DNA of 44,802 nt from Patescibacteria group bacterium (GTDB lineage Bacteria > Patescibacteriota > Minisyncoccia > Phycocordibacterales > UBA9973): the NCBI GenBank assembly GCA_018816985.1, contig JAHIVA010000042.1:1-44802 (forward strand). Direction: 5' to 3'. How positions within the stretch are numbered: position 1 is the first letter of the stretch; every line of letters starts with the position of its first letter. Made by a program: the position numbers and the translations under genes. Positions 1,479 through 15,129 of this stretch are shown here, in pieces. The notes under the pieces were generated by a model. That model was given only the letters and a program-made list of their open reading frames with translations, did not search any database and had not been told where the DNA came from.

Positions 1479-2540
1479 ATGGAAGAAGTCAAAAATGATT
1501 ACATCGAAAAAGCACTCAACGAACTTATTCCGACCTTGGGAATAAAAGAGTTTATTGACCATGAAAAGCTTATCGTTCTTATAGGTTCTAAAAAAGTTAA
1601 AGAAGCCATTAAAGGAATTGCCCTATATTTGGGATTACCAATAGAAGTAAATATTTCTTATGTTCCAAAAGGATATCGTCCAAGTTCTAATGATGGTTTT
1701 CAAAGTACACATCTTGTAAAAACAGATCAACACAATCGTGGCGTTGGGGGTATCACCGCACAAGTCTCTATCCCACCCAATCTACCTTTTTATGGAAGCC
1801 CAAGTATGGTTAATTTTCCTATTAATGTCAGATTAAGCGAAAATTGTGCAGAGAATCCCGCAACATTGATTAGTATCATGGCGCACGAACTTTCACATAT
1901 TGTTCTTTACTCCCTATGGAACAGAGAGAAAGAAAATGAATTCTATACTGATCTGACAGCCATGATTCTTGGCTTCGCAAATATAATGAAAACAGGCAGA
2001 AAGGTCGTTAAGGTCACTCAAATTCCAAATGGAACACATACACAAACAACAACTTATGGTTATCTGTCAGACGATAATTTTAATTACGCCTTCCATAAAA
2101 TTAATGGTGTTTTGAATAAGCAAAAATCAGAAAAGAAGAAACTGGCTAGGAAGTTAAAACAATTAAAGAAAAAGTTAAATAAAATTAAAAAATTATCTTT
2201 TTACTTCGAGAGCTATCTTGCTTATTTGGATAAAAATCTTCACCAAAAAATTTCTCAGGAGGATGGTCGCAAAATCATGGCTTTTCACCAGCCCGGACAT
2301 ACTGATAATTTTCAATCCACCATTAGGAAAAATGAAACAATACTAGAGAGTTTCATAAAGTTTGTGGAAAATCTTAAAAATTATACTGGCAAAAACATAG
2401 AAGTAATGAAACAACAGGAAACTCAACTAAAATCCGCTAATGAGGAATTAGATAAACAGCGCTTACTACTTCAAAATGACCTAGATGTTCTCAAGAAATA
2501 TATCGGTTTCTTTTATAGATTAAAGCTGAAGTTCACTTAA
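1479..2540 (+). CDS. putative metallopeptidase-like protein with C-terminal coiled coil
   Basis: HExxH motif (IMAHELSHIVLY) followed by ENEFYTDL; Lys/Glu-rich coiled-coil C-terminal half. Confidence 0.6.
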   Translation: MEEVKNDYIEKALNELIPTLGIKEFIDHEKLIVLIGSKKVKEAIKGIALYLGLPIEVNISYVPKGYRPSSNDGFQSTHLVKTDQHNRGVGGITAQVSIPPNLPFYGSPSMVNFPINVRLSENCAENPATLISIMAHELSHIVLYSLWNREKENEFYTDLTAMILGFANIMKTGRKVVKVTQIPNGTHTQTTTYGYLSDDNFNYAFHKINGVLNKQKSEKKKLARKLKQLKKKLNKIKKLSFYFESYLAYLDKNLHQKISQEDGRKIMAFHQPGHTDNFQSTIRKNETILESFIKFVENLKNYTGKNIEVMKQQETQLKSANEELDKQRLLLQNDLDVLKKYIGFFYRLKLKFT

Positions 2541-2678: not shown

Positions 2679-3710
2679 TTAATTCAACCAAAAGAAAATG
2701 CTGTTTTTTAAATCTTCTTGTAGGCGAAATGTGCTGCCGTGACTTAAGACACCTAAGTAAGATTGGACTGCTTGGTGAAAATAGTCATACGGCAACAGAC
2801 CATCTTTCACTAGCTTTGCCTTTTCCTTCAATTTCTTGAAGATTCTTTCCTCAGTTTTTAATCTTGGAATAACTGCGTTTGGAAAACAAGTGTATCCAAG
2901 AAAATCGACTCCTTGAGAAAACTTTCTAAGAAGAATTTTGCGAGGGTGAAGATCGAGCTTTAGATTATCAGATAAAAATTTACCCATTGGCTTTATCAAT
3001 TTTAAACAATTATCTCTTTGAGTATGAAGTATAACAAAGTCGTCAGCATAACGAACATAATAACGTTCTTTGAGAGTGTGCTTCATAAATTGGTCGAGCT
3101 CATTGAGATATACATTAGCAAAAAGTTGAGAAGTGAGATTCCCAATCGGTAACCCCTTTGGCTTGTTCGGATCTCGACTTAATTCTGACTTGAAACTTGA
3201 GATAATCTCCTTAAGTAGCCATCGAGTGTCATTATCGTGAACACGGCGAAATAGAATTTCGATAAGCACACCATGGTCTACGCTCGCGAAGAACTTTTTA
3301 ACATCACACTTCAACACCCAACATGGTTGGGTGTAATTCTTACTCTCTCGTCGTGCGTACGAAATAAATCTTTGAACGCCTCGATGACTTCCTTTATTGA
3401 TCCGACATGAATAAGAATCATGAATGAATGTTGGCTCAAAAATGGGGTTAAGAATTTTTACAAGTGCATGATGTAATACTCTATCTCTTACGGAAGCCTT
3501 GTGAATATGACGTACTTTTGGATCATGCACAAAAAAAGATTCATAAGGTAAATGAGAGTAGGTTTTATTGCGGAGTGATTCGTGAAGTTTCCAGATATTA
3601 TCTTCAAGTTTGTGTTCAAATAGCAAAACATCCTCTTTTTCTTTTTTGCCAATTTGAAATTCCTTCCATGAAGCGAATAAGTTCTCAAGATTAATTATTG
3701 AATCAAACAT
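2679..3710 (-). CDS. DGR-type reverse transcriptase (ORF track start 3728; internal Met at 3710 looks likelier)
   Basis: RT motifs WVLKCDVKKFFASVDH, GLPIGNLTSQLFANVYLNELD (DGR-type SQ motif) and YVRYADDFVIL. Confidence 0.95.
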   Translation of the reverse strand: MFDSIINLENLFASWKEFQIGKKEKEDVLLFEHKLEDNIWKLHESLRNKTYSHLPYESFFVHDPKVRHIHKASVRDRVLHHALVKILNPIFEPTFIHDSYSCRINKGSHRGVQRFISYARRESKNYTQPCWVLKCDVKKFFASVDHGVLIEILFRRVHDNDTRWLLKEIISSFKSELSRDPNKPKGLPIGNLTSQLFANVYLNELDQFMKHTLKERYYVRYADDFVILHTQRDNCLKLIKPMGKFLSDNLKLDLHPRKILLRKFSQGVDFLGYTCFPNAVIPRLKTEERIFKKLKEKAKLVKDGLLPYDYFHQAVQSYLGVLSHGSTFRLQEDLKNSIFFWLN

Positions 3711-4088
3711 ATGATTAATGACCCTCATAAATTAAGTGGACAATTTAGTATAGACATTCCGATTTTCAAGAAGACATACGACTTCATGCGTGAGTTTTAT
3801 ATCTTTGAACTTGATTTTCCGAAAAAAGACCGCTATACCCTTGGTCAACGTTGTGAGTTATACATCGTTGATATTTTAGAAGGAATAATGATGGCCGCTC
3901 AAACCGAAAAGAGTAGAAAGTTGCAAATCCTTGAAGGAGTAAGCAACAAACTTGATCTACTAAAAGTATTTATTCGGCTTTCAACAGATCTCAATATTCT
4001 TAGTGACAAACGCTATGTCGTCTGCCAAAATCATCTCCAAGAAATTGGAAGAATGCTTGGTGGCTGGATACGATCCGTGCGCGAGTAA
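3711..4088 (+). CDS. avd: Avd-like four-helix-bundle DGR accessory protein
   Basis: IPIFKKTYDFMREFY...FPKKDRYTLGQRCE...LGGWIRSVRE pattern typical of bAvd-like proteins; adjacent to RT and TR. Confidence 0.85.
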   Translation: MINDPHKLSGQFSIDIPIFKKTYDFMREFYIFELDFPKKDRYTLGQRCELYIVDILEGIMMAAQTEKSRKLQILEGVSNKLDLLKVFIRLSTDLNILSDKRYVVCQNHLQEIGRMLGGWIRSVRE

Positions 4089-4096
4089 TCACTTTA

Positions 4097-4130
4097 CAAG
4101 AGAAGCCTCTTTTAAAAGAGGCTTCTCTTG
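4097..4130. repeat. 34-bp perfect palindrome between avd and TR (terminator and/or RNA hairpin)
   Basis: caagagaagcctctttt|aaaagaggcttctcttg, 17+17 bp. Confidence 0.9.
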
Positions 4131-4149
4131 AGCTACATTAGTGAGACTG

Positions 4150-4267
4150 CCGGGCAGGACACACGCCCAAATTGGAGTTCCGATTGTCGCGCGTATCGTT
4201 GTTGACGTTGAGACCGTCCGAATCGAAGTTCCCAACGTTGACGAACTTGCCGTCGGACGACTGGACG
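4150..4267 (-). repeat. DGR template repeat (TR), 118 bp
   Basis: Minus strand cgtccagtcgtccgacggcaagttcgtcAACgttgggAACttc...ctgcccgg; matches VR1 and VR2 over the full length, with differences at TR adenines (one extra non-A difference in VR2). Confidence 0.96.
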
Positions 4268-4277
4268 CTCAGCCCAT

Positions 4278-4389
4278 GTGTTTTGTTTCCTCTGTTATCA
4301 CCGGAGATTGTCTTAAAATAGACTTTCCCCTGAATTTTACTCGGTGGTAACCCTTAATGAATAAGGACACCCACACTGAAACAAAACAC
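4278..4389 (-). ncRNA. putative structured RNA domain immediately 5' of the TR
   Basis: Nested inverted repeats: gtgttttgtttc (4278-4289)/gaaacaaaacac (4378-4389), gttatcaccg (4294-4303)/cggtggtaac (4342-4351), taaaat (4314-4319)/atttta (4334-4339). Confidence 0.55.
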
Positions 4390-4553
4390 GTAGTTTCATC
4401 TTTGTACTCTGTTCCGGCCACACACTTCGCTAAGCCATAAAGACCTAGTAAACTCCGGTGGATATTGAAACAAGGAGGCTCGCAAGATTAAACCGTAAAG
4501 CCCAATCTCTATAAGCAAGACTCAGCAGATAGTATAACCCAAAAAATTAGGTA

Positions 4554-4582
4554 TTGCAAAAACTAATATTTAGAGTTAAAAT
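4554..4582 (+). promoter_or_regulatory. sigma70-like promoter for the MoxR operon
   Basis: TTGCAA (4554-4559), 17 bp, TAAAAT (4577-4582). Confidence 0.45.
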
Positions 4583-4591
4583 GCAAGCAAT

Positions 4592-6262
4592 ATGGCAAAA
4601 GAATCCTTACCCCACATTCCTAATATCCCAACTACGCCTGAGCGGGTTTTGCGCGAAAAGAAAACAGAGACAAAAGAAGCTAAACCTCTTAGTGCAGAAC
4701 AAATAAAAGAACAGGTAACTGAGCTTTTTGAGCTTTCCTCGGCTAGGGCTGAGGCTGGAAAACATACTCGGGAAGCCTGGGGTGGTCTTACGAAAGAGGA
4801 ACGTGAAGAACTAAAAAGTAAGGGTGAAGATGCAGTTGTCGCACACATAGAAACCGCTCGGCTTGATCCCGAGCTGGTTGAGTTTAGAGAAACAACCTTA
4901 AAGGAATACGACGATAGGATTGCAGAACTTTCTAGTAATCCCCAAGTACTTGATGCATACAAAAATCGTTTTGGAGAACTTAAAGAAACATTAGCCCGTA
5001 CGGTTTCGTATGAACACTTGCGTCATGAAGAGGATGCTGTAGATAAAGCGGAACAAAAACTTCGAAAACTCTATGAAGGAGTTGGTAGAGCACCGGGACC
5101 TATTGAACGCAAAAAATTAACTGCGTTTTCTGACCGTAAAAAAGAAGTTGAGGAAGAATTAAAGGGTTTTGAACTTGATTCCAAAACAATTGACATGCTA
5201 CGTCGCAGAGAAGTTCGTCGCATGCAACACGATCTTGAGCGTTACAGTTTTGCGGAAACAGAATCACGCAGAGAACTTATTAGACAAGTGCTACCCGACT
5301 TACTACAAGGTGCTCCGGTGCTTTTCCAGGGTGAAACTGGATCCGGCAAGTCACAACTTGCAAAATATATTTCTGAGAGATATTTGGGCAAAACTCCTAC
5401 AATAGTTTCCGTGAGTGAACAAATAAAAGAATCTCAAATCATGGGGTCACGTGGACTTGAAGCCGGACAAACGGTTTTCAATTATTCAGAATTTGTGAAA
5501 GCTCAGAAAGAAGGACGACCAGTAATTCTCGATGAAGTAAATCTCATGCCACATGAATTTGCTGGACTTTTGCATGATCTTCTACAAAAGCGCGTTGGAG
5601 ATGTATGGGTACATCCAGTTACTGGAGAGAAAATTCCAATTACTGCCCCCATCATGGCTACAGCAAACTTAAAATCAGAACGCTACAAACAACGCTACGA
5701 GCTTGATGTTGCTACACTTCGACGTTTCATTGGAGGTGCAGGTGCTCGTGAAATTCACTATCTCGACATTGGCAAGAAAGATACAGAAGGAAATCCAATA
5801 GCTCCGGAAACACTGCAAATTCTTTCTGCAGTACTTGCCGATAGACATGGTGATATAGAATGGAGCGAGAAGGAAGCAATGGAAAAAGTTGAAGAACTTA
5901 AACGTTTTGTGCAAGCTTGCAGAAAAATTCAGGAAGATTTTACACTTTCAATTAGAGAAGGTGGTGAAGAATCTCTCGCCCGAGGAGACCGTCTAGCATT
6001 TAAAGAACTTGTGATTACTCTTAAAGATCAGATCGAGATTATGAAAGCTTGGAAGGCCTCGAGTTTCCGTGAGCCACTTGATTCTATTGTACTTAGAGAA
6101 TTTTTCCACAAAGCAGAGATTAGTGGTCGTGCGGCTAAAGATCGTGAAAATATGATTAAGGTCTTTATTGCTAATAAATTATTCCAAAATACCAATCCAG
6201 AAGATTTCAAAATTCAGGGTCTTTCTCCGAAAGCTGTTCGACAGTGGCAAGGTAAAGAATAA
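4592..6262 (+). CDS. MoxR-type AAA+ ATPase
   Basis: Walker A VLFQGETGSGKSQLAKYI; Walker B PVILDEVNLMP; TANLKSERYKQRYELDVATLRRF sensor region. Confidence 0.9.
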   Translation: MAKESLPHIPNIPTTPERVLREKKTETKEAKPLSAEQIKEQVTELFELSSARAEAGKHTREAWGGLTKEEREELKSKGEDAVVAHIETARLDPELVEFRETTLKEYDDRIAELSSNPQVLDAYKNRFGELKETLARTVSYEHLRHEEDAVDKAEQKLRKLYEGVGRAPGPIERKKLTAFSDRKKEVEEELKGFELDSKTIDMLRRREVRRMQHDLERYSFAETESRRELIRQVLPDLLQGAPVLFQGETGSGKSQLAKYISERYLGKTPTIVSVSEQIKESQIMGSRGLEAGQTVFNYSEFVKAQKEGRPVILDEVNLMPHEFAGLLHDLLQKRVGDVWVHPVTGEKIPITAPIMATANLKSERYKQRYELDVATLRRFIGGAGAREIHYLDIGKKDTEGNPIAPETLQILSAVLADRHGDIEWSEKEAMEKVEELKRFVQACRKIQEDFTLSIREGGEESLARGDRLAFKELVITLKDQIEIMKAWKASSFREPLDSIVLREFFHKAEISGRAAKDRENMIKVFIANKLFQNTNPEDFKIQGLSPKAVRQWQGKE

Positions 6263-6267
6263 CCGTT

Positions 6268-7071
6268 ATGCCATTCGAAGCCTATAAAATCTATCAAGAG
6301 TATGAACCCGACAAGTACAAGACTTCTACTCAAGAGAAGGTTGCTAAAGCGTTAGCGGGGGCGAAGAAAGAAGGACTTACACCAGTTAAAGAGTCCCTAG
6401 ACTTCAGTGAAGTTCAGGAGATTTTTGGACAAGACTTTATTGGTATCAAAGAAGTAGAACAATTTACTGGGCGTTCACTCACTCTCGAAGAACAAAGAAT
6501 TGCAGAAGAAAAATGGCATAAAAAAGTTGAGGAGCAGGGCCTTACCAAAGAAAGTTTAGAACGGCTCAAGCAAGAGGGATTCATGGTAGTTCTTCGTGTT
6601 GGAAAGCTTGCTGGAAAAGAAAAAAAAGATAAAGAAATGCCAGTGACCATAAAAAATCTTCGACAAAAATTTCCCCTATTTTACGATCAAGATTGGTACG
6701 ACAACGAACAATTTGCCGGTGAAGCATTAAGTGGTATTGATTGGGGTATTGTTAAAAAAGAACTCCTAGATGAGTCAAAAAGCAAAAACTGGGATGAGCA
6801 ACAAGAAATTCTAAAGGCATGGGCGGATACACATGGTGTTGACCAAAAGTTTGTACGTCGTAGGACACCAACCGAAGTTGCTTATGATATTTTGGCTTAC
6901 TTCCAAGTACGCAACGAACGAATACTTGAGAAGGATTGGGACTGGACCTCCGTCCAGTCGTCCGGCGGCAGGTTCGTCTGCGTTGGGGGCTTCGGTTCGG
7001 ACGGTCTCGGCGTCGCCCACGGTACGCGCGACTTTCGGTTCTCCACTTTGGGCGTGTGTCCTGCCCGGTAG
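6268..7071 (+). CDS. DGR-diversified variable protein 1 (C-terminus encoded by VR1)
   Basis: C-terminus SVQSSGGRFVCVGGFGSDGLGVAHGTRDFRFSTLGVCPAR* encoded by VR1; paralogue of 9148-9960. Confidence 0.92.
   Translation: MPFEAYKIYQEYEPDKYKTSTQEKVAKALAGAKKEGLTPVKESLDFSEVQEIFGQDFIGIKEVEQFTGRSLTLEEQRIAEEKWHKKVEEQGLTKESLERLKQEGFMVVLRVGKLAGKEKKDKEMPVTIKNLRQKFPLFYDQDWYDNEQFAGEALSGIDWGIVKKELLDESKSKNWDEQQEILKAWADTHGVDQKFVRRRTPTEVAYDILAYFQVRNERILEKDWDWTSVQSSGGRFVCVGGFGSDGLGVAHGTRDFRFSTLGVCPAR
6951..7068 (+). repeat. DGR variable repeat VR1, 118 bp
   Basis: 18 differences from TR, all at TR adenines (18 of 25 A positions). Confidence 0.96.
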
Positions 7072-7146
7072 TTTCATCATGGGTACTTGGGTATTGGTTG
7101 CTTGATCCTTTGTATTCTTGGTTTCTTGGTTCGAAAAATTTTTTAA
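7069..7146 (+). repeat. 78-bp post-VR repeat, copy 1 (stop codon plus downstream)
   Basis: tagtttcatcatgggtacttgggtattgg...ggttcgaaaaattttttaa, identical to 9958-10035. Confidence 0.95.
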
Positions 7147-7149
7147 ATC

Positions 7150-9144
7150 ATGAATGAATCATTCCCGAAAAACAAAATAGAAGAATCGTCGGTAAAACCT
7201 CCAAAAACAGAAGGTGTGGTTGATCCATCTAAAGTTGAAGAATTTTTTGACAAGGAAGCTGAAATTCTTGGAGCATATGGTCTTAAAGGAGATGTTACCC
7301 TTGAACGTGGTTCCAACGGTTGGGCTTTTGATTTTCAAAATAAAAAACTCATTTACGACCCAAGTTTTTTTGCAGAACGTGGATACAATATGCAAGAAAC
7401 CCTTTTTGCCACAACTCATGAGCTTATGGCACATTGCGGTGAACTGCTTCGTGACCCCGAACTGATTCTCAGAGAAGCCAAGCGTTATTCCAGAAAAGAG
7501 CACCTACATCTTTTACATAATATTTTTGAAGACGTACTTGGTAATCGTCGTATTGTGGCAGAACTACCATTCCTAGGAGAAACACGAACTAAGCTTTATG
7601 AAGAAAAACTATTCCCTCAAACCGATTACCAAGAGAATGCCTCCCATGTCCAATTTGCCTATGGATTCATTCGTGAAATGATGGTGCCAGGAAAACCCGT
7701 TCAACTTGGTCCGGAAGCGCGCCAAGCTCTTGATAAACTTCGTAGCTTCGGAGAAGACCAAATCGATATTCTTGATCTTGTTACAACTCCTTCTATTGAA
7801 CCAAAAGACCGTTTTCAAATTATGCGAAGTATCGTTGAACCAATCTATTTAGATCTCTATCAAAAAGATCTCGAGAAAGAAAAGAAAAAAGATGATAAGA
7901 AAGATTCTGGTCAAGGGGGTGAGAGTAGCCCATCTGATCAACCTCCTCAAGAAGGAAAAGGTGGACAAGATGATAAAAAACAAACTACAGGGAAAGATAA
8001 AAAGAAGTGGTGGCAGAGTGGTAAAGAAAAAGATAAAGGACAGCCCAAGCCTGGAAAAGAGCCAGGGAAACCAGCACAAGGAAAAGGTGGTGAATCAGGC
8101 GAGGAAGAAGCAAAAAAGAAGTTCCAAAAAGAATACCAACCATATAAAGACTCTCACCCCGAACCATTAAAGCCGGAAGATGAAGAAGAATTCAAAAAAA
8201 CACTTGAATCTCTTGCTAGTAAACGTGGAGGTGCTCCATCTCTTGATAGGGCAATTATCGAACAATGGGCGAAAGAACATGGAGTAAGTGCCGAGGATGT
8301 TTTAGGATACAGAAAAGAGTATGAAGAAATTGCACCCTTGGTCGCAGAGTTGCGAGAAGTGTTCAAACAAATCGTATCCAAACGTCTAAAGGAACGTTGG
8401 AAAATGTCGCCACAACTTCAAACTGAGGGCGAGATGCTAGATGAGGAAACACTTGCGGAATCATATATTGAATCTACTGCCGGAGGAAAGCCTCATGCCT
8501 TCCGAGAGATATCTCGTACCAACAAGGAACAAGTTGGATATGGATCGCTTGACATGACGCTTGTGAATGACCTATCGGGTTCAATGAATGAGGGCGCAAA
8601 ACTTTCTATGGATCGCAAATCAAAAATTCTTTTCCTAGAGTCGCTCGCTGATTTTCAAAAAGAGATCAAAGACGCTGAATATCAAAACGGAGTCTCACTT
8701 GGTCTTGAAGTTCGTACCGAAACACGAGCATTCGGAGATTTTGGAGATACTGAACTAAAAGCATTAAGCCCTGATCTTTCTGAAAAGGATCGGATCACAA
8801 TCTGGAAGCGACTTCATAAAGGATCTGGCGGAACACCTGATTACCTTTCTCTCGAAACCATAGAAAAATCACTTACCTCTGAATATGAAGAAGAATTGAG
8901 AAGTAAAAGAAAACGAAAAGTAATAGTAGTACTTTCTGATGGAGACTCACAAGATGCAAATCGTGTTCAACAAACTTGTGAAAGATTACGCAAAAAAGGA
9001 ATCATCGTTCTTGGTTTCGGAATGACCGCCTCAGGGCAGGCTGTAAAAGAAACTTACAAACCGGATGCCGAAGTTATTGAGGACATTCGTACGTTGCCCA
9101 AAGCTATGCAAAAAGTTATTATTAAATATATACAAGACTTATAA
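7150..9144 (+). CDS. vWA-domain protein (CobT/NorD-like partner of MoxR)
   Basis: MIDAS MTLVNDLSGSMNEG, KVIVVLSDGDSQD; acidic/basic low-complexity linker; N-terminal THELMAH stretch. Confidence 0.88.
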   Translation: MNESFPKNKIEESSVKPPKTEGVVDPSKVEEFFDKEAEILGAYGLKGDVTLERGSNGWAFDFQNKKLIYDPSFFAERGYNMQETLFATTHELMAHCGELLRDPELILREAKRYSRKEHLHLLHNIFEDVLGNRRIVAELPFLGETRTKLYEEKLFPQTDYQENASHVQFAYGFIREMMVPGKPVQLGPEARQALDKLRSFGEDQIDILDLVTTPSIEPKDRFQIMRSIVEPIYLDLYQKDLEKEKKKDDKKDSGQGGESSPSDQPPQEGKGGQDDKKQTTGKDKKKWWQSGKEKDKGQPKPGKEPGKPAQGKGGESGEEEAKKKFQKEYQPYKDSHPEPLKPEDEEEFKKTLESLASKRGGAPSLDRAIIEQWAKEHGVSAEDVLGYRKEYEEIAPLVAELREVFKQIVSKRLKERWKMSPQLQTEGEMLDEETLAESYIESTAGGKPHAFREISRTNKEQVGYGSLDMTLVNDLSGSMNEGAKLSMDRKSKILFLESLADFQKEIKDAEYQNGVSLGLEVRTETRAFGDFGDTELKALSPDLSEKDRITIWKRLHKGSGGTPDYLSLETIEKSLTSEYEEELRSKRKRKVIVVLSDGDSQDANRVQQTCERLRKKGIIVLGFGMTASGQAVKETYKPDAEVIEDIRTLPKAMQKVIIKYIQDL

Positions 9145-9147
9145 TTT

Positions 9148-9960
9148 ATGCCATTCGAAGCTTACAAAATTTACCAAGAATACGAGCCAAACAAGTATAA
9201 AACTTCTACTCAAGAGAAGGTTGCTAAAGCATTAGCTGGAGCTAAAAAAGAGGGGCTTGTTCCCAAACCTGAAGCTATTGATTTTCGAGAAGCCAAAGAA
9301 ATAATGGGTAAAGACTTTCTCGGACCCGAGGCTATTGAGGCAACTTTGGGTATTAAGCTTTCTCCTGAAGAACTTGAGCAAGTAGAGAACATTCCATTTA
9401 CCCCGGAGGAGCTGGAACAAGCAAAAGAACTTGGCATGATGCTTGTGCTTCGCATATCGCATGATAAAGATAACAAACCACTTACGTTAAACCGTATGCG
9501 AGAAATTCTCGCTGGAGAAGACAAACTCGGAGATCCTCAGAAAAAGAAAACGAAACTATTTTATCGACAGCCTGGCGATGGATGGTATAAAGACGAAACA
9601 TTCGCAACTGAAACAGTCGCTGGTTTTGGATGGGGTTTATCTAAAAAAGAAGTTTTACAAGAATCTTTGAGTAAAAACTGGGACGAGCAAGAAGAAATTC
9701 TCAAAAAATGGGCGGAGGAAAATAATATAGATCCACAAACCATTCGACGCAGAACGCCGATTGAAGCTACCTATGACACTATGCTTTACTATGGAGCAAA
9801 CAAAGAAAGTTTACTTGAAGGGACTTACGACTGGACCTCCGTCCAGTCGTCCGACGGCAAGTTCGTCCTCGTTGGGAGCTTCGTTTCGGTCGGTCTCTAC
9901 GTCGGCAACGATACGCGCGCGGATCGGCTCTCCACTTTGGGCGTGTGTCCTGCCCGGTAG
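9148..9960 (+). CDS. DGR-diversified variable protein 2 (C-terminus encoded by VR2)
   Basis: C-terminus SVQSSDGKFVLVGSFVSVGLYVGNDTRADRLSTLGVCPAR*; N-terminus MPFEAYKIYQEYEPNKYKTSTQEKVAKALAGAKKEGL nearly identical to protein 1. Confidence 0.92.
   Translation: MPFEAYKIYQEYEPNKYKTSTQEKVAKALAGAKKEGLVPKPEAIDFREAKEIMGKDFLGPEAIEATLGIKLSPEELEQVENIPFTPEELEQAKELGMMLVLRISHDKDNKPLTLNRMREILAGEDKLGDPQKKKTKLFYRQPGDGWYKDETFATETVAGFGWGLSKKEVLQESLSKNWDEQEEILKKWAEENNIDPQTIRRRTPIEATYDTMLYYGANKESLLEGTYDWTSVQSSDGKFVLVGSFVSVGLYVGNDTRADRLSTLGVCPAR
9840..9957 (+). repeat. DGR variable repeat VR2, 118 bp
   Basis: 13 differences at TR adenines plus one C-to-G difference. Confidence 0.96.
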
Positions 9961-10035
9961 TTTCATCATGGGTACTTGGGTATTGGTTGCTTGATCCTTT
10001 GTATTCTTGGTTTCTTGGTTCGAAAAATTTTTTAA
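9958..10035 (+). repeat. 78-bp post-VR repeat, copy 2
   Basis: Identical to 7069-7146. Confidence 0.95.
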
Positions 10036-10043
10036 GAACTAGG

Positions 10044-11363
10044 TTATTTAGATAGAAAAATCTGTTTTTGTTTTAGTATTATTTTACCCTTAAGACAACC
10101 GAGTAATTCTCTTTTCTGAAAATCCTCACCTTCTTGTAAAACGTACTTCGTATAACTCCGTATATCAACACCCGACACATTCACTTTTTCCTTGTTTCCT
10201 AAAAAGAATTTCTGCATCCTGGTAAATTTCTCAACATCAGCCTTAATTTTTTGCTTGATCTCAATTTCATTGATATTTAGATTTTCAATCAGGTTTTCAA
10301 ACTGCTTAATTAGTTCTTTCTCTTCAATGTAGCCACATTTGCAATTGCCGTCCTTGGCTTTCGTGCAACCATAATATACATAACGATGAGTAGCATTTTT
10401 AAACTTTTTAAATTTTTCACAAGCCGAGATGCCGGAATCGCATAAACCACAAGCCATCATTTTAGTAAAAGCGAATTCTTTTCCTTCGGATCTTAGAATT
10501 TGACTTTTAACCTGCTCTTGGACTAAATCAAAAAGTTCTTTAGTAATAAGGGGTTCATGCTTTCCCGTATACCAATTTCCACTTCCTCTAGGATATTCAA
10601 ATACTCCGTAGTAAAAAGTATTACTTAAGGTTCTATAAATATTTCCCAAACTAAGATGTTTCTTCCCTGCGGCAGTCCTAAAATTGAGATCAAATCGGAG
10701 CCAATTGTATACTTTTCTACCACTCCATTTTTCATAGGCGACTTTCTCAAAGATTTTTTTAATAACGTGACCTCGTTCAGGATCTATGATTACTTGGCAT
10801 TTTCTGTCCATCATTTTTTGGTTTAAGTAGCCGGTCGGTGCTACTCCTGGCCATAACCCCATTTCTACCCTAGTTCTTAGCCCTCTTTTTACATTCACGC
10901 TTTTATTATCATTTTCAAGTTTCGCTTGAGAACATAGAATCATTAATAGGAACTTTTCATTTGGTGAATTTTTAAAGTGCTGTCCATAAGTGCGAATTTC
11001 CATTAATAACTTTTGATCCATGAGATCAACAATGCTTCCGAGGTCGCCTGCATTACGAGATAGTCTGTCTGGTGCCCATGTCAGAATTCCATTAAACCTA
11101 CCTCGTCGTATATCTTCAAGAATTTCCTTATAGACAGGTCTTTGCCCTGATTCTTTTGCCGAGTGAGATTCTCTCCTGATTTCTACAACTTCTAATCCTT
11201 CTCTTTCAGCCATACTAAGCATTTCTTTGATCTGGGAATCAATAGACAAAACTTGGCGTTCTTCTGATTCAGTACTCTTTCTGGCATATAGAACATATTT
11301 AATTTTTACTGTTGGAATAACGGCCATATTGCCTATCAATCCAACGCTTGCTTGTGTTTCCAT
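10044..11363 (-). CDS. large serine recombinase / site-specific integrase
   Basis: Resolvase N-terminus YVLYARKSTESEERQVLSIDSQ, LTWAPDRLSRNAGD; recombinase domain and zinc-ribbon CGLCDSG...CTKAKDGNCKC. Confidence 0.92.
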   Translation of the reverse strand: METQASVGLIGNMAVIPTVKIKYVLYARKSTESEERQVLSIDSQIKEMLSMAEREGLEVVEIRRESHSAKESGQRPVYKEILEDIRRGRFNGILTWAPDRLSRNAGDLGSIVDLMDQKLLMEIRTYGQHFKNSPNEKFLLMILCSQAKLENDNKSVNVKRGLRTRVEMGLWPGVAPTGYLNQKMMDRKCQVIIDPERGHVIKKIFEKVAYEKWSGRKVYNWLRFDLNFRTAAGKKHLSLGNIYRTLSNTFYYGVFEYPRGSGNWYTGKHEPLITKELFDLVQEQVKSQILRSEGKEFAFTKMMACGLCDSGISACEKFKKFKNATHRYVYYGCTKAKDGNCKCGYIEEKELIKQFENLIENLNINEIEIKQKIKADVEKFTRMQKFFLGNKEKVNVSGVDIRSYTKYVLQEGEDFQKRELLGCLKGKIILKQKQIFLSK

Positions 11364-11526
11364 ACCCTAATGATGTCAGAGAACTAGTCGTTTGCTAAGC
11401 TATGATCGTTGGTAACGTGTTGGTAACTTTCCTTAACAAAATAGCTATTCTGCGATAGGGTGAAGTTGGAATAATAGTGTAAAAAATGCTATTATTTCAT
11501 TAACAATTTAATATTATTCAAATAAT

Positions 11527-11680
11527 CTAACCCCTTATATACATTAAGGATATGATTAAAAATCCGTCCAAAGTAAAAAACTCCTAGTCAGAGTTACTTT
11601 GGACGGTTATATCTCGAAAGGGATATAGGCATTCCCTACGGGGCTTGTCGACCTTGGCTAGGAGCTTTTTGCTACCTATC
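11527..11680 (+). ncRNA. candidate structured intergenic RNA / regulatory element
   Basis: 13-bp perfect hairpin ccgtccaaagtaa (11564-11576)/ttactttggacgg (11594-11606); loop CTCCTAG (11581-11587) complementary to CTAGGAG (11658-11664). Confidence 0.45.
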
Positions 11681-12384: not shown

Positions 12385-13251
12385 ATGAAAAAGAAAATTT
12401 TATATATCCTTGGTGGATTAGTTGCTCTCTTTATTGTTATTGGCATTTTTGGACCCAAACCAGAAAAAGGTGCGGTGCAAAATACGGATCAGGATATACC
12501 TACCGTTGCCATAAATAGCGAAATAGAAAATGGCGATCCAGTCGTTAGTGAAACAAGCTCAACTTCTAAAGTACTAAAAACAACCACTGACACTAATAGT
12601 TATAGATATTATTCTGTATCAAGTGTTGTCGATGGGGATACAGTCAAAATTAACGTCGATGGAACAATAGAAACTTTCCGTCTCATCGGAATGGATACAC
12701 CAGAGACAGTTGATCCTAGAAAAGAAGTTCAATGTTTTGGAGTGGAAGCATCAAATAAAGCAAAAGAATTATTATCAGGAAAGAAAGTTAGAATAGAAAC
12801 TGATGCCTCACAAGGAACGTATGATAAATACAACCGTTTACTTGGTTATGTTTATCGTGAAGATGGATTGTTTTATAACAAATACATGATTGAACAGGGT
12901 TATGCCCATGAATATACCTACAACTCACCATACAAATATCAAACTGAATTTAAAAACGCACAAAAATTAGCTCAGGATAATTTGAGAGGACTTTGGTCAC
13001 CAAATACTTGTAATGGAAACACGACATCTAGCGCAAGCACTTCTACTCCAACAACCACGACTACTCCACCGCCAGCTACACAATCAACTGGAAAGTATTA
13101 CACCTCTTCGGCTTCAAATACCAAGTATTACGCTCCGGAATCCTGTGAATACTGGAAGACTTGGTCTACATCCAACCTAAGATCATTTAATTCTCTTGCA
13201 GAGCTTCAGAAAGTGTATCCTTCCAGAACTTTGAGTCCACAGTGCAACTAG
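12385..13251 (+). CDS. membrane-anchored/secreted thermonuclease (SNase) domain protein
   Basis: N-terminal TM; VVDGDTVKINVDG..FRLIGMDTPETVDPR...CFGVEASNKAKELL...GYVYREDGLFYNKYMIEQGYA. Confidence 0.9.
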   Translation: MKKKILYILGGLVALFIVIGIFGPKPEKGAVQNTDQDIPTVAINSEIENGDPVVSETSSTSKVLKTTTDTNSYRYYSVSSVVDGDTVKINVDGTIETFRLIGMDTPETVDPRKEVQCFGVEASNKAKELLSGKKVRIETDASQGTYDKYNRLLGYVYREDGLFYNKYMIEQGYAHEYTYNSPYKYQTEFKNAQKLAQDNLRGLWSPNTCNGNTTSSASTSTPTTTTTPPPATQSTGKYYTSSASNTKYYAPESCEYWKTWSTSNLRSFNSLAELQKVYPSRTLSPQCN

Positions 13252-14732
13252 ATAAAAGATATTCCTGGTGTAGGCAAGTTCATAAAAAGAATGAACTGAT
13301 TGGTCACAAGAGAAAAAGCATCAGCAAGGTCATCGTGTTTTTCCACTCCGAAACCAGTGAGTTGTCCTATTAATTCCTCGCATCCTTTTCTAGGGAACAA
13401 GATATGACCATTTTGAATAGCCATGCTTGTCATTATCAATCGCTCACGTTTGTCTCCATGTGGTGTTATTCCCTCTACCCACAATCCGTCTTTCTTCAAT
13501 TGTTGGATTAATGCTTCTTGATATGAAACTTTCTCGATATAAATTCGAGGAGTTCTGTCTGATTTCAAACTCCCGGCAAGTATTTTTATTTGTTGAACCT
13601 GTTCCGGAAAAGTAAGGCGTTGATTGATCGGGTATGGCAGGACAAATGCCTTGCGTTCGTTTCCTATGGAATAAACTTTCAACACTACCATTGCCGTATT
13701 GTCCGCACTTTCATTTTGAGAGATGGCCAGATCGACCCCGACCCAATAGCCCACAAATGAATTTTCATCATATGGGATCCCATCGTAGTATTGTAGCCAT
13801 TCCGGTTGCACGGCTCGTCCGGCATCGGACACGATTCGGAGAAGATATTCTCTCTGCCAGGCAATTTCATTGCCGACTTTGCGTTTTTCCATTTCAATAT
13901 ATCCTTCGTTGGGATATTTCCCAAGCCAAGCAATTTTGCCTTCGCTGTTAATGAGCGGGTAGGCTCTGAATTCCGCATCCAGTAGCTTTTCTTCCACATC
14001 CTGTTTTAGACGCATCATCAGACTGTCTTCGTGTAGTAGGTTTCCGACTACGATTAGTTGTGTATCTCTATCTCCGGCTGGAATAACTTCACCACGAAGC
14101 CAAGCGTGGGTTTTGTCGCGACTCTCTCTGGTTTTTACCGAAGCCATATCTTCTATATCGTCACAGATTATGAGATCAGGACGGTATTGATGATGCCTGA
14201 TTCCACGGATGCTCTGCTCGCTTGAGGCGGCCGTGACTCTCGCGTTCGTATTGGAGAAAACCAGAGACGATGCACCCCATTCATCGGTTTCTTCTTGGAA
14301 TGGTCCTAGATCATTTCGTAGAAGCTCGTTGCTTTCCAGTTCACGCTTCAAATTCATCATATGTTGTTTTGCCTGGGTGCGAGTCTGACAAAGAATCAGC
14401 ACGAACTTTTTCTCTTTTACGCCGAGAATCGCCCAAATGGGGTAGGACATAGTAAGTAGAGTTGATTTACCTGAACCACGAAAAGCAACCACAAAAAGAT
14501 TTTTAACATTTTTGTCTTCTGTCAGGCTAAAAATTTCTTTTTGGAATGGTGCAGTTTCATACTTCACATAATGAGCAAAATAGAAGTTAAAGAAATACAA
14601 ATGGCTTTCTCTAGTAATGGCGACACGAATGTCACGATCGTTGAACATCTTGTTGAATAAATTACCCGGTATGTTATTTTTCATCTTTTTTATTTTCGTT
14701 ATTATTAATTTCTTCCGCTCCCTCGTCGACAT
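13248..14732 (-). CDS. phage terminase large subunit
   Basis: ATPase FRGSGKSTLLTMSYPIW, DLIICDDIEDM; nuclease YWVGVDLAISQNESADNTAMVV. Confidence 0.88.
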   Translation of the reverse strand: MSTRERKKLIITKIKKMKNNIPGNLFNKMFNDRDIRVAITRESHLYFFNFYFAHYVKYETAPFQKEIFSLTEDKNVKNLFVVAFRGSGKSTLLTMSYPIWAILGVKEKKFVLILCQTRTQAKQHMMNLKRELESNELLRNDLGPFQEETDEWGASSLVFSNTNARVTAASSEQSIRGIRHHQYRPDLIICDDIEDMASVKTRESRDKTHAWLRGEVIPAGDRDTQLIVVGNLLHEDSLMMRLKQDVEEKLLDAEFRAYPLINSEGKIAWLGKYPNEGYIEMEKRKVGNEIAWQREYLLRIVSDAGRAVQPEWLQYYDGIPYDENSFVGYWVGVDLAISQNESADNTAMVVLKVYSIGNERKAFVLPYPINQRLTFPEQVQQIKILAGSLKSDRTPRIYIEKVSYQEALIQQLKKDGLWVEGITPHGDKRERLIMTSMAIQNGHILFPRKGCEELIGQLTGFGVEKHDDLADAFSLVTNQFILFMNLPTPGISFI

Positions 14733-15129
14733 TGAGGGAAGCGAGCCTTAGGGCTTCAGTCACTATTGCTTGTTGCTCCGGAGTCAGTTCATTTTTCGGA
14801 GTTTCGATTTTACCGCTAACTTCTATGCGGTCTTTGAATTTAGGATTACATTTACGAAGCCAGAATGAAATTGCCGGCCAACTTCTCTGTCGGATTAGAG
14901 ATATTAACTGAGATTCACTCATGTCATTGATAAATTCAACACCTTCCGCTAACGCATTATCACTCCGCTCCATAAAACCTTTATCCTCTTTGCGCCAACG
15001 GTAATAAGTCGCACGACTTATACCAGCTTTTTTACACGCTATTTGAATGATTGGCACCTCTTTTAATATTTCCAAGAGAGCCTGTTTATCCTTCTCAGTT
15101 CTTTCATCAACCATTGTGTTGTTTTCCAT
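14674..15129 (-). CDS. terminase small subunit-like HTH protein
   Basis: ACKKAGISRATYYRWRKEDKGF HTH; overlaps terL start. Confidence 0.75.
   Translation of the reverse strand: MENNTMVDERTEKDKQALLEILKEVPIIQIACKKAGISRATYYRWRKEDKGFMERSDNALAEGVEFINDMSESQLISLIRQRSWPAISFWLRKCNPKFKDRIEVSGKIETPKNELTPEQQAIVTEALRLASLNVDEGAEEINNNENKKDEK

What the first reader, a model, noticed from the sequence alone, without database searches (positions are those of the whole stretch)
2679..9957. Complete DGR with one template and two target genes, mutated at template adenines
Hand alignment of TR (4150-4267, minus) to VR1 (6951-7068) and VR2 (9840-9957) gives ungapped 118-bp matches. VR1 differs at 18 positions, all TR adenines (18 of 25). 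VR2 differs at 13 TR adenines plus one other base. Six AAC and two AAT codons in the TR are the main hotspots (N to C,G,G,A,H,F,F,T in VR1; N to L,S,Y,G,N,D,L,T in VR2). The RT has the DGR-type IGNLTSQ motif and an Avd-like protein is adjacent. This is the signature of active mutagenic retrohoming.
Basis: partly seen in the sequence, partly recalled or inferred. Interest (0 to 1): 0.9.

Follow-up and report, generated by a model that had tools for sequence, protein, structure and literature searches.

The report
Patescibacterial DGR feeding a MoxR-vWA module
A tiny uncultured bacterium carries a machine that deliberately scrambles the tips of two proteins encoded beside a protein-remodelling motor and a likely protease, and the scrambled genes end in a repeat pattern that seems to mark them as targets in place of the DNA hairpin known from other such machines.

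Summary
TR 4150-4267(-) matches VR1 and VR2 without gaps; 18/18 and 13/14 differences lie at TR adenines. RT, Avd and both target genes are intact, and three relatives carry the same cassette. Across species TR adenines are frozen (0/25 changed) while the same VR sites are saturated (15-19/25). As a DGR it is a new member of a known kind.

Two further points matter more. (1) The targets form an apparent operon with a MoxR AAA+ ATPase and a vWA protein with a zincin-like N-terminus. The linkage recurs across Patescibacteria on three to four RT-tree branches, and in several genomes MoxR and the DGR-varied domain are one protein. This bears on the open question of what CPR DGR targets do. (2) Right behind the VR lies a CTT(K)R array phased at 7-8 nt, seen in most of 78 Patescibacterial VRs. 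It is absent behind TRs, behind other genes, and behind homologous targets in two genomes with no detected RT. The canonical GRNA-loop hairpin was found at none of the 78. I infer that the array is the retrohoming target mark.

Current activity, the sensor role and the array's function are inferred, not shown.

The parts
2679..3728 (-). DGR reverse transcriptase, 349 aa
   Evidence: RVT_1 E 5.7e-23; phrog_1423 RT E 1.4e-110; IGNLTSQ and YADD motifs
3711..4088 (+). Avd, 125 aa, on the strand opposite to RT and TR; 5' ends of Avd and RT genes overlap by 18 bp
   Evidence: NF033474 above cut-off; PF22296 bAvd; phrog_3206; overlap kept in L041
4097..4130 (.). 15-bp perfect hairpin between the convergent Avd and TR; terminator role inferred
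   Evidence: fold z -5.2 and -6.3 on the two strands; different sequence but also a hairpin in relatives
4142..4149 (-). Extension of TR/VR homology holding the IMH*-like differences (CAGTCTCA in TR, TAGTTTCA in VR)
4150..4267 (-). Template repeat (TR), 25 adenines
   Evidence: unchanged adenines in relatives
4592..6262 (+). MoxR-type AAA+ ATPase, 556 aa
   Evidence: AAA_5 E 4.2e-17
6268..7071 (+). Target gene 1, 267 aa, VR at C-terminus
6951..7068 (+). VR1
   Evidence: 18/18 differences at TR adenines
7086..7129 (+). Post-VR1 array: CTTGG ATTGG CTTGA CTTTG CTTGG CTTGG at 7-9 nt steps
   Evidence: survey
7130..7145 (+). TTCGAAAAATTTTTTA tract behind array 1
   Evidence: same tract in relatives
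7150..9144 (+). vWA protein, 664 aa, with a zincin-like N-terminal domain (H90 E91 H95 N124 D128 N132)
   Evidence: VWA E 4e-6; invariant residues in 11 homologues; model pLDDT 86; nearest PDB folds mostly zincins
9148..9960 (+). Target gene 2, 270 aa, VR at C-terminus
9840..9957 (+). VR2
   Evidence: 13/14 differences at TR adenines
9975..10018 (+). Post-VR2 array, identical to array 1
10019..10034 (+). TTCGAAAAATTTTTTA tract behind array 2

Best explanation
This is a genuine DGR of a Nomurabacteria-like Patescibacterium. Shown by sequence: one TR, an RT, an Avd, and two paralogous target genes whose C-terminal VRs carry A-specific substitutions. Inferred mechanism: the RT with Avd copies the TR RNA into cDNA with random bases opposite adenines; the cDNA replaces the VR, using the IMH at its 3' end and a CTT(K)R array phased at 7-8 nt behind the VR that marks the target site in place of the hairpin of phage DGRs. 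Inferred role: the varied proteins are intracellular ligand-binding sensors or adaptors that work with the MoxR AAA+ ATPase and the vWA-peptidase protein of the same operon, so that ligand binding is passed through the ATPase to the vWA-peptidase protein, as proposed for MoxR-vWA conflict systems of multicellular bacteria. Rough likelihoods: DGR identity 0.98; functional link to MoxR-vWA 0.8; array as retrohoming element 0.55; defence or conflict role 0.45.
For: DGR. Same cassette in G005, G044 and Yanofskybacteria. TR adenines 0/25 changed between species while VR sites differ 15-19/25. MoxR/vWA beside RT+Avd in loci from many families, on three to four branches of the RT tree; MoxR and target domain in one ORF in L164, L168, L170 and AAA_5 plus target in L167. 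Zincin-like domain. Array: peak at 0-60 nt behind 78 VRs with 7-8 nt period, absent behind TRs; 45/80 VR ends against 14/970 other gene ends; present in 21 DGR-linked targets, absent in 15 homologous targets of genomes with no RT found; GRNA hairpin 0/78 against 8/21 in other DGRs.
Against: No read-level proof of current activity. Target fold not confirmed: model pLDDT 71.8, poor over the VR, no PDB fold match. Zincin match is not significant alone (E 0.16 or worse) and the window lineage has HExxxH, not HExxH. No VMAP component found. The array is weak or missing in a good part of VRs (35 of 80 have runs under 3). None of about 64 other DGR loci of the same order has MoxR or vWA, so the role cannot be general for CPR DGRs.
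Confidence: 0.65

Rival explanations
1. The post-VR array acts in the target mRNA (3' end formation, stability or translation control) or is a generic 3' intergenic sequence of Patescibacteria, not a DNA mark for retrohoming.
For: It directly follows the stop codon, and some loci have terminator-like hairpins further on.
Against: Runs of three or more phased CTT occur at 45/80 VR ends but 14/970 other gene ends, so it is not generic. Homologous targets in genomes with no RT found lack it. The window copy is not unusually foldable as RNA (z -0.9). An mRNA role restricted to DGR targets is not excluded.
Confidence: 0.35
2. The varied proteins are host- or prey-attachment proteins (adhesins) that happen to lie beside MoxR-vWA genes; MoxR-vWA only matures or folds them as a chaperone.
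For: MoxR-vWA pairs such as NorQ-NorD and RavA-ViaA act as chaperones (literature listed). DGR targets of phages and many cells are attachment proteins (Roux 2021).
Against: No hydrophobic signal or membrane segment is visible in the target sequences (read by eye). In several genomes the target domain is part of the MoxR polypeptide itself, which does not fit a surface adhesin.
Confidence: 0.3
3. The DGR is a relic: VR differences are old and the system no longer works.
For: No read-level data; the only near-identical strain pair (L041/L043) is identical over 9,995 bp, VR included.
Against: RT, Avd, TR and targets are intact with catalytic YADD; in the species compared TR adenines are unchanged and VR sites saturated; non-adenine VR sites hardly differ between VR1 and VR2 of one genome (1/93 and 0/93), which suggests continued copying from the TR.
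Confidence: 0.08

Closest known systems
Bordetella phage BPP-1 DGR (prototype)
   Same: RT, Avd, TR, C-terminal VR, A-specific differences, IMH/IMH*-like asymmetry
   Different: BPP-1 has a GC hairpin with GAAA loop behind the VR (required for homing, PMC3240598); here none, but a phased CTT(K)R array. Avd is antisense between TR and RT. Targets are not tail proteins but lie in a MoxR-vWA operon.
Patescibacteria (CPR) DGRs, clade 2 of Roux et al. 2021
   Same: RT similarity of about 45-53% to the surveyed same-order DGRs, antisense Avd in 51 of 51 pairs with an Avd hit, targets without known domains (PMC8144416). Clade placement itself was not tested.
   Different: Targets here are in one operon with MoxR and vWA and on the strand opposite to RT/TR; the other DGR loci surveyed in the order lack MoxR/vWA
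VMAP (vWA-MoxR-associated protein) ternary conflict systems with DGRs (Kaur 2020, PMC7159879; Dore 2024, PMC10907252)
   Same: MoxR AAA+ ATPase, vWA protein and DGR-varied C-terminal domain encoded together; peptidase-like component
   Different: No VMAP found; variable domain is on separate proteins or fused to MoxR instead of vWA; zincin-like or transglutaminase-like domain on the vWA protein; Patescibacteria instead of multicellular bacteria
Multi-target and inverted DGR cassettes (Yan 2019, PMC6642488; DiGReF 2012, PMC3521204)
   Same: One TR with several VRs and VRs on the strand opposite to RT/TR are already known
   Different: Different organisms and targets; antisense Avd is not described in the passages read

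Membership tests
DGR | RT of DGR type with YxDD and IGNLTSQ-like motif | tested here: met
DGR | TR/VR pair with differences confined to TR adenines | tested here: met
   18/18 and 13/14
DGR | Avd accessory protein | tested here: met
   NF033474 above cut-off
DGR | IMH / IMH* sequence difference at the 3' end of VR and TR | tested here: met
   TAGTTTCA in VRs, CAGTCTCA in TR; differences at this place in all four species
DGR | GC hairpin with GRNA loop behind the VR (reported for phage and many other DGRs; not universal) | tested here: not met
   0/78 Patescibacterial VRs, 8/21 others
DGR | Target with C-type lectin fold | tested here: inconclusive
   secondary structure order is compatible, but no PDB fold match
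DGR | Mutagenic retrohoming in vivo | not testable with these tools
   needs reads or an assay; indirect support
MoxR-vWA (VMAP) ternary conflict system | MoxR AAA+ ATPase and vWA protein in one operon | tested here: met
MoxR-vWA (VMAP) ternary conflict system | VMAP component | tested here: not met
   no VMAP match among cassette proteins in Pfam, PADLOC or NCBIfam; so not filed as a VMAP system
MoxR-vWA (VMAP) ternary conflict system | Effector domain such as a peptidase | tested here: inconclusive
   zincin-like N-terminus of the vWA protein; catalysis untested

The most novel reading that the evidence does not exclude
Patescibacterial DGRs use a new class of target-recognition element, a CTT(K)R array phased at 7-8 nt directly behind the VR, in place of the DNA hairpin; and some of them diversify sensor domains wired by operon or gene fusion to MoxR-vWA peptidase modules, an adaptable sensing system in organisms with genomes near 1 Mb.
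Probability: 0.45. Interest if true: 0.8.

Novelty: new variant of a known kind. Interest (0 to 1): 0.62.

Why it matters
Roux et al. 2021 left open what the domain-less CPR DGR targets do. Operon linkage on several RT branches and MoxR::target fusions give a direct, testable answer for part of them. The array is a candidate cis-element that could explain how these DGRs choose targets without the hairpin that BPP-1 needs, and it may predict from sequence which genes are live targets. It also extends DGR-linked MoxR-vWA systems, so far described mainly for multicellular bacteria, to minimal-genome Patescibacteria.

Tried and rejected
A hairpin spanning the VR 5' border (GACTGGAC/GTCCAGTC) was dropped because Yanofskybacteria does not keep it. 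Fold search with the target model gave nothing usable. Profile searches of PDB sequences with target and vWA alignments found no relatives. A strict DNA pattern for the array in the whole genome gave only chance-level hits (4, equal to the reversed control) and missed the arrays themselves. IMG/VR scans gave a contig identical to Yanofskybacteria over 9,995 bp, so no strain comparison of VRs. Direct repeats bounding a mobile element were sought and not found. Two key surveys of DGRs (Paul 2017, Wu 2018) are not held, so novelty against them is untested.
Full report
OBSERVATION. TR 4267->4150 (minus) matches VR1 6951-7068 and VR2 9840-9957 over 118 nt without gaps. All 18 VR1 differences and 13 of 14 VR2 differences fall on the 25 TR adenines (P 6e-16 and 9e-10). 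The match continues 8 nt with two fixed C>T differences (TR GGCAGTCTCA, VR GGTAGTTTCA), an IMH*/IMH-like pair that also creates the target stop codon. The RT is intact with IGNLTSQ and YADD and the neighbour is a true Avd (NF033474 above cut-off). No other copy of this TR was found in the genome. The genome is a 1.02-Mb, 136-contig assembly with 8% estimated contamination; the same cassette in three relatives makes a chimera unlikely.

RELATIVES. The cassette is present in Nomurabacteria GWF2_43_8 (G005/L045), Nomurabacteria fen_1327 (G044/L046-L047) and, with three targets, Yanofskybacteria (L041). Each has its own A-specific VRs. Among the three Nomurabacteria, TR adenines show 0/25 changes, while the matching VR sites differ at 15-19/25 and all other sites at 4-8 of 91-93. 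In all of them RT and TR lie on one strand with Avd antisense between them. Among other DGRs surveyed in the same order Avd is antisense in 51 of 51 TR/VR pairs with an Avd hit, and the VR is co-oriented with the RT in 49 of those 51. So the antisense Avd is normal for this group and only the divergent target operon is unusual. A 15-bp hairpin separates the convergent Avd and TR; that it ends both transcripts is inferred.

TARGET OPERON. The order is MoxR AAA+ (4592-6262), target 1, vWA protein (7150-9144), target 2. The vWA N-terminus has H90-E91...H95 (HELMAH, one residue longer than the HExxH of its distant homologues), N124, D128 and N132 invariant in 11 homologues. Its model is good (pLDDT 86) and the nearest solved structures are mostly zincins: selecase, jannalysin, IrrE/PprI, SprT, BlaR1. 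E-values are 0.16 or worse, so the fold is supported, not proven. Two other vWA proteins in this set carry a transglutaminase-like domain instead (L164, L178).

PHYLUM SURVEY. In 380 Patescibacterial genomes 14 encode the vWA homologue and 22 the target homologue. Loci with RT and Avd beside MoxR, vWA and/or AAA::target genes are L163 (vWA, target, MoxR, target, RT, Avd, TR), L164, L166-L170, L172, L174, L175, L176 and L178. In L164, L168 and L170 one ORF of 925-959 aa holds both the MoxR profile match and the VR-bearing target domain; L167 has AAA_5 plus target. On the RT tree the linkage needs at least four changes, yet is clustered (12.2 expected by shuffling); one row (L176) is a very long branch, so three to four branches is the safe statement. 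MoxR or vWA matches were not found in about 64 other DGR loci of the same order.

POST-VR ARRAY. Both VRs are followed by the same block: CTTGG, ATTGG, CTTGA, CTTTG, CTTGG, CTTGG at 7-9 nt steps, then TTCGAAAAATTTTTTA. In 78 VRs from 67 Patescibacterial loci CTT-G type motifs peak at 0-60 nt behind the VR (1.46 and 1.29 per 34-nt window, mostly 0.1-0.45 elsewhere, 0.18-0.19 behind TRs), and CTT-to-CTT distances peak at 7 and 8 nt (58 and 71 pairs against 4.3 and 4.5 in shuffles) with a second peak at 15-16. Phased runs of three or more occur at 45 of 80 VR ends, 14 of 970 other gene ends and 3 of 29 VRs outside Patescibacteria (Fisher 1.6e-44 and 1.9e-5). Cyanobacterial VRs show a looser CCCTTTT version. 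The canonical GC stem with GRNA loop is found at 0/78 Patescibacterial VRs but at 8/21 phage or plasmid DGRs, BPP-1 included. A natural control: 21 targets of this family from DGR-bearing genomes average 3.4 motifs, whereas 15 homologous targets of two genomes in which no RT was found (G189, G220) average 0.13; in hand-listing these I took one G309 target (L165) whose RT is on another contig, and left out L179/L180, whose genome has only a partial RT match elsewhere and which show one motif each. An A-tract (AAATTTT) lies at 30-70 nt in 23% of VRs. The VRs are not independent by descent, so P-values overstate, but the TR, other-gene and no-RT controls come from the same loci or the same protein family. 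The motif was noticed before it was counted, so an independent DGR set should be used to confirm it.

MECHANISM. Shown: A-specific template-directed variation; conserved cassette; recurrent MoxR/vWA linkage and fusion; array tied to DGR targets. Inferred: cDNA mutagenesis by RT with Avd; the array as target mark; the varied domain as ligand sensor; signalling through MoxR to the vWA-peptidase protein; a role in conflict with phages or other elements.

AGAINST THE LITERATURE. Multi-VR and opposite-strand DGRs are known. DGR-linked MoxR-vWA systems are known in multicellular bacteria (Kaur 2020, Dore 2024); no VMAP was found here. Roux 2021 left the nature of CPR targets open. A hairpin behind the VR is required for efficient homing in BPP-1 and reported in archaeal DGRs. 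I found no mention of a CTT array or of MoxR-linked CPR DGRs in the open-access texts searched, but key subscription papers are not held.

Noticed in passing
L049 (G000 contig C132): VR 472-605, TR 1165-1298, RT 1348-2394: The same genome assembly holds a second, unrelated DGR in the usual order VR, TR, RT, with 10 of 11 TR/VR differences at adenines and a degenerate TTTG repeat behind its VR.
   Followed up: partly
window 12385-15129: SNase, large terminase (46% identical to that of L043) and small-terminase-like genes lie beside the cassette here and in Yanofskybacteria; terminase homologues also lie in L164, L169, L052 and L096. A phage-derived carrier is possible.
   Followed up: partly
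window 10044-11363 (-): A large serine recombinase gene directly follows target 2; a related stretch (65% identity) lies left of the cassette in L047. No flanking direct repeats were found.
   Followed up: partly
window 11524-11645 (+): A LOOT RNA (RF03000, 74.3 bits), an RNA family of unknown function; a related stretch lies behind the cassette of G044 (L046 3716-3797).
   Followed up: no
L161 and L162 (G189 contigs C2 and C7): At least 14 paralogous target-family genes around a MoxR-vWA pair in a genome where no DGR RT was found; none carries the post-VR array. How their C-termini diversify is unexplained.
   Followed up: partly
L207 and L211 (Microcystis and Acaryochloris plasmids): Cyanobacterial DGR VRs are followed by CCCTTTT-type repeats and not by a GRNA hairpin; a MoxR ATPase and a serine protease lie in the same Acaryochloris locus.
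   Followed up: no
window 1479-2540 (+): A 353-aa protein of unknown function left of the RT contains MAHELSH, an HExxH motif with a weak SprT-like match.
   Followed up: no
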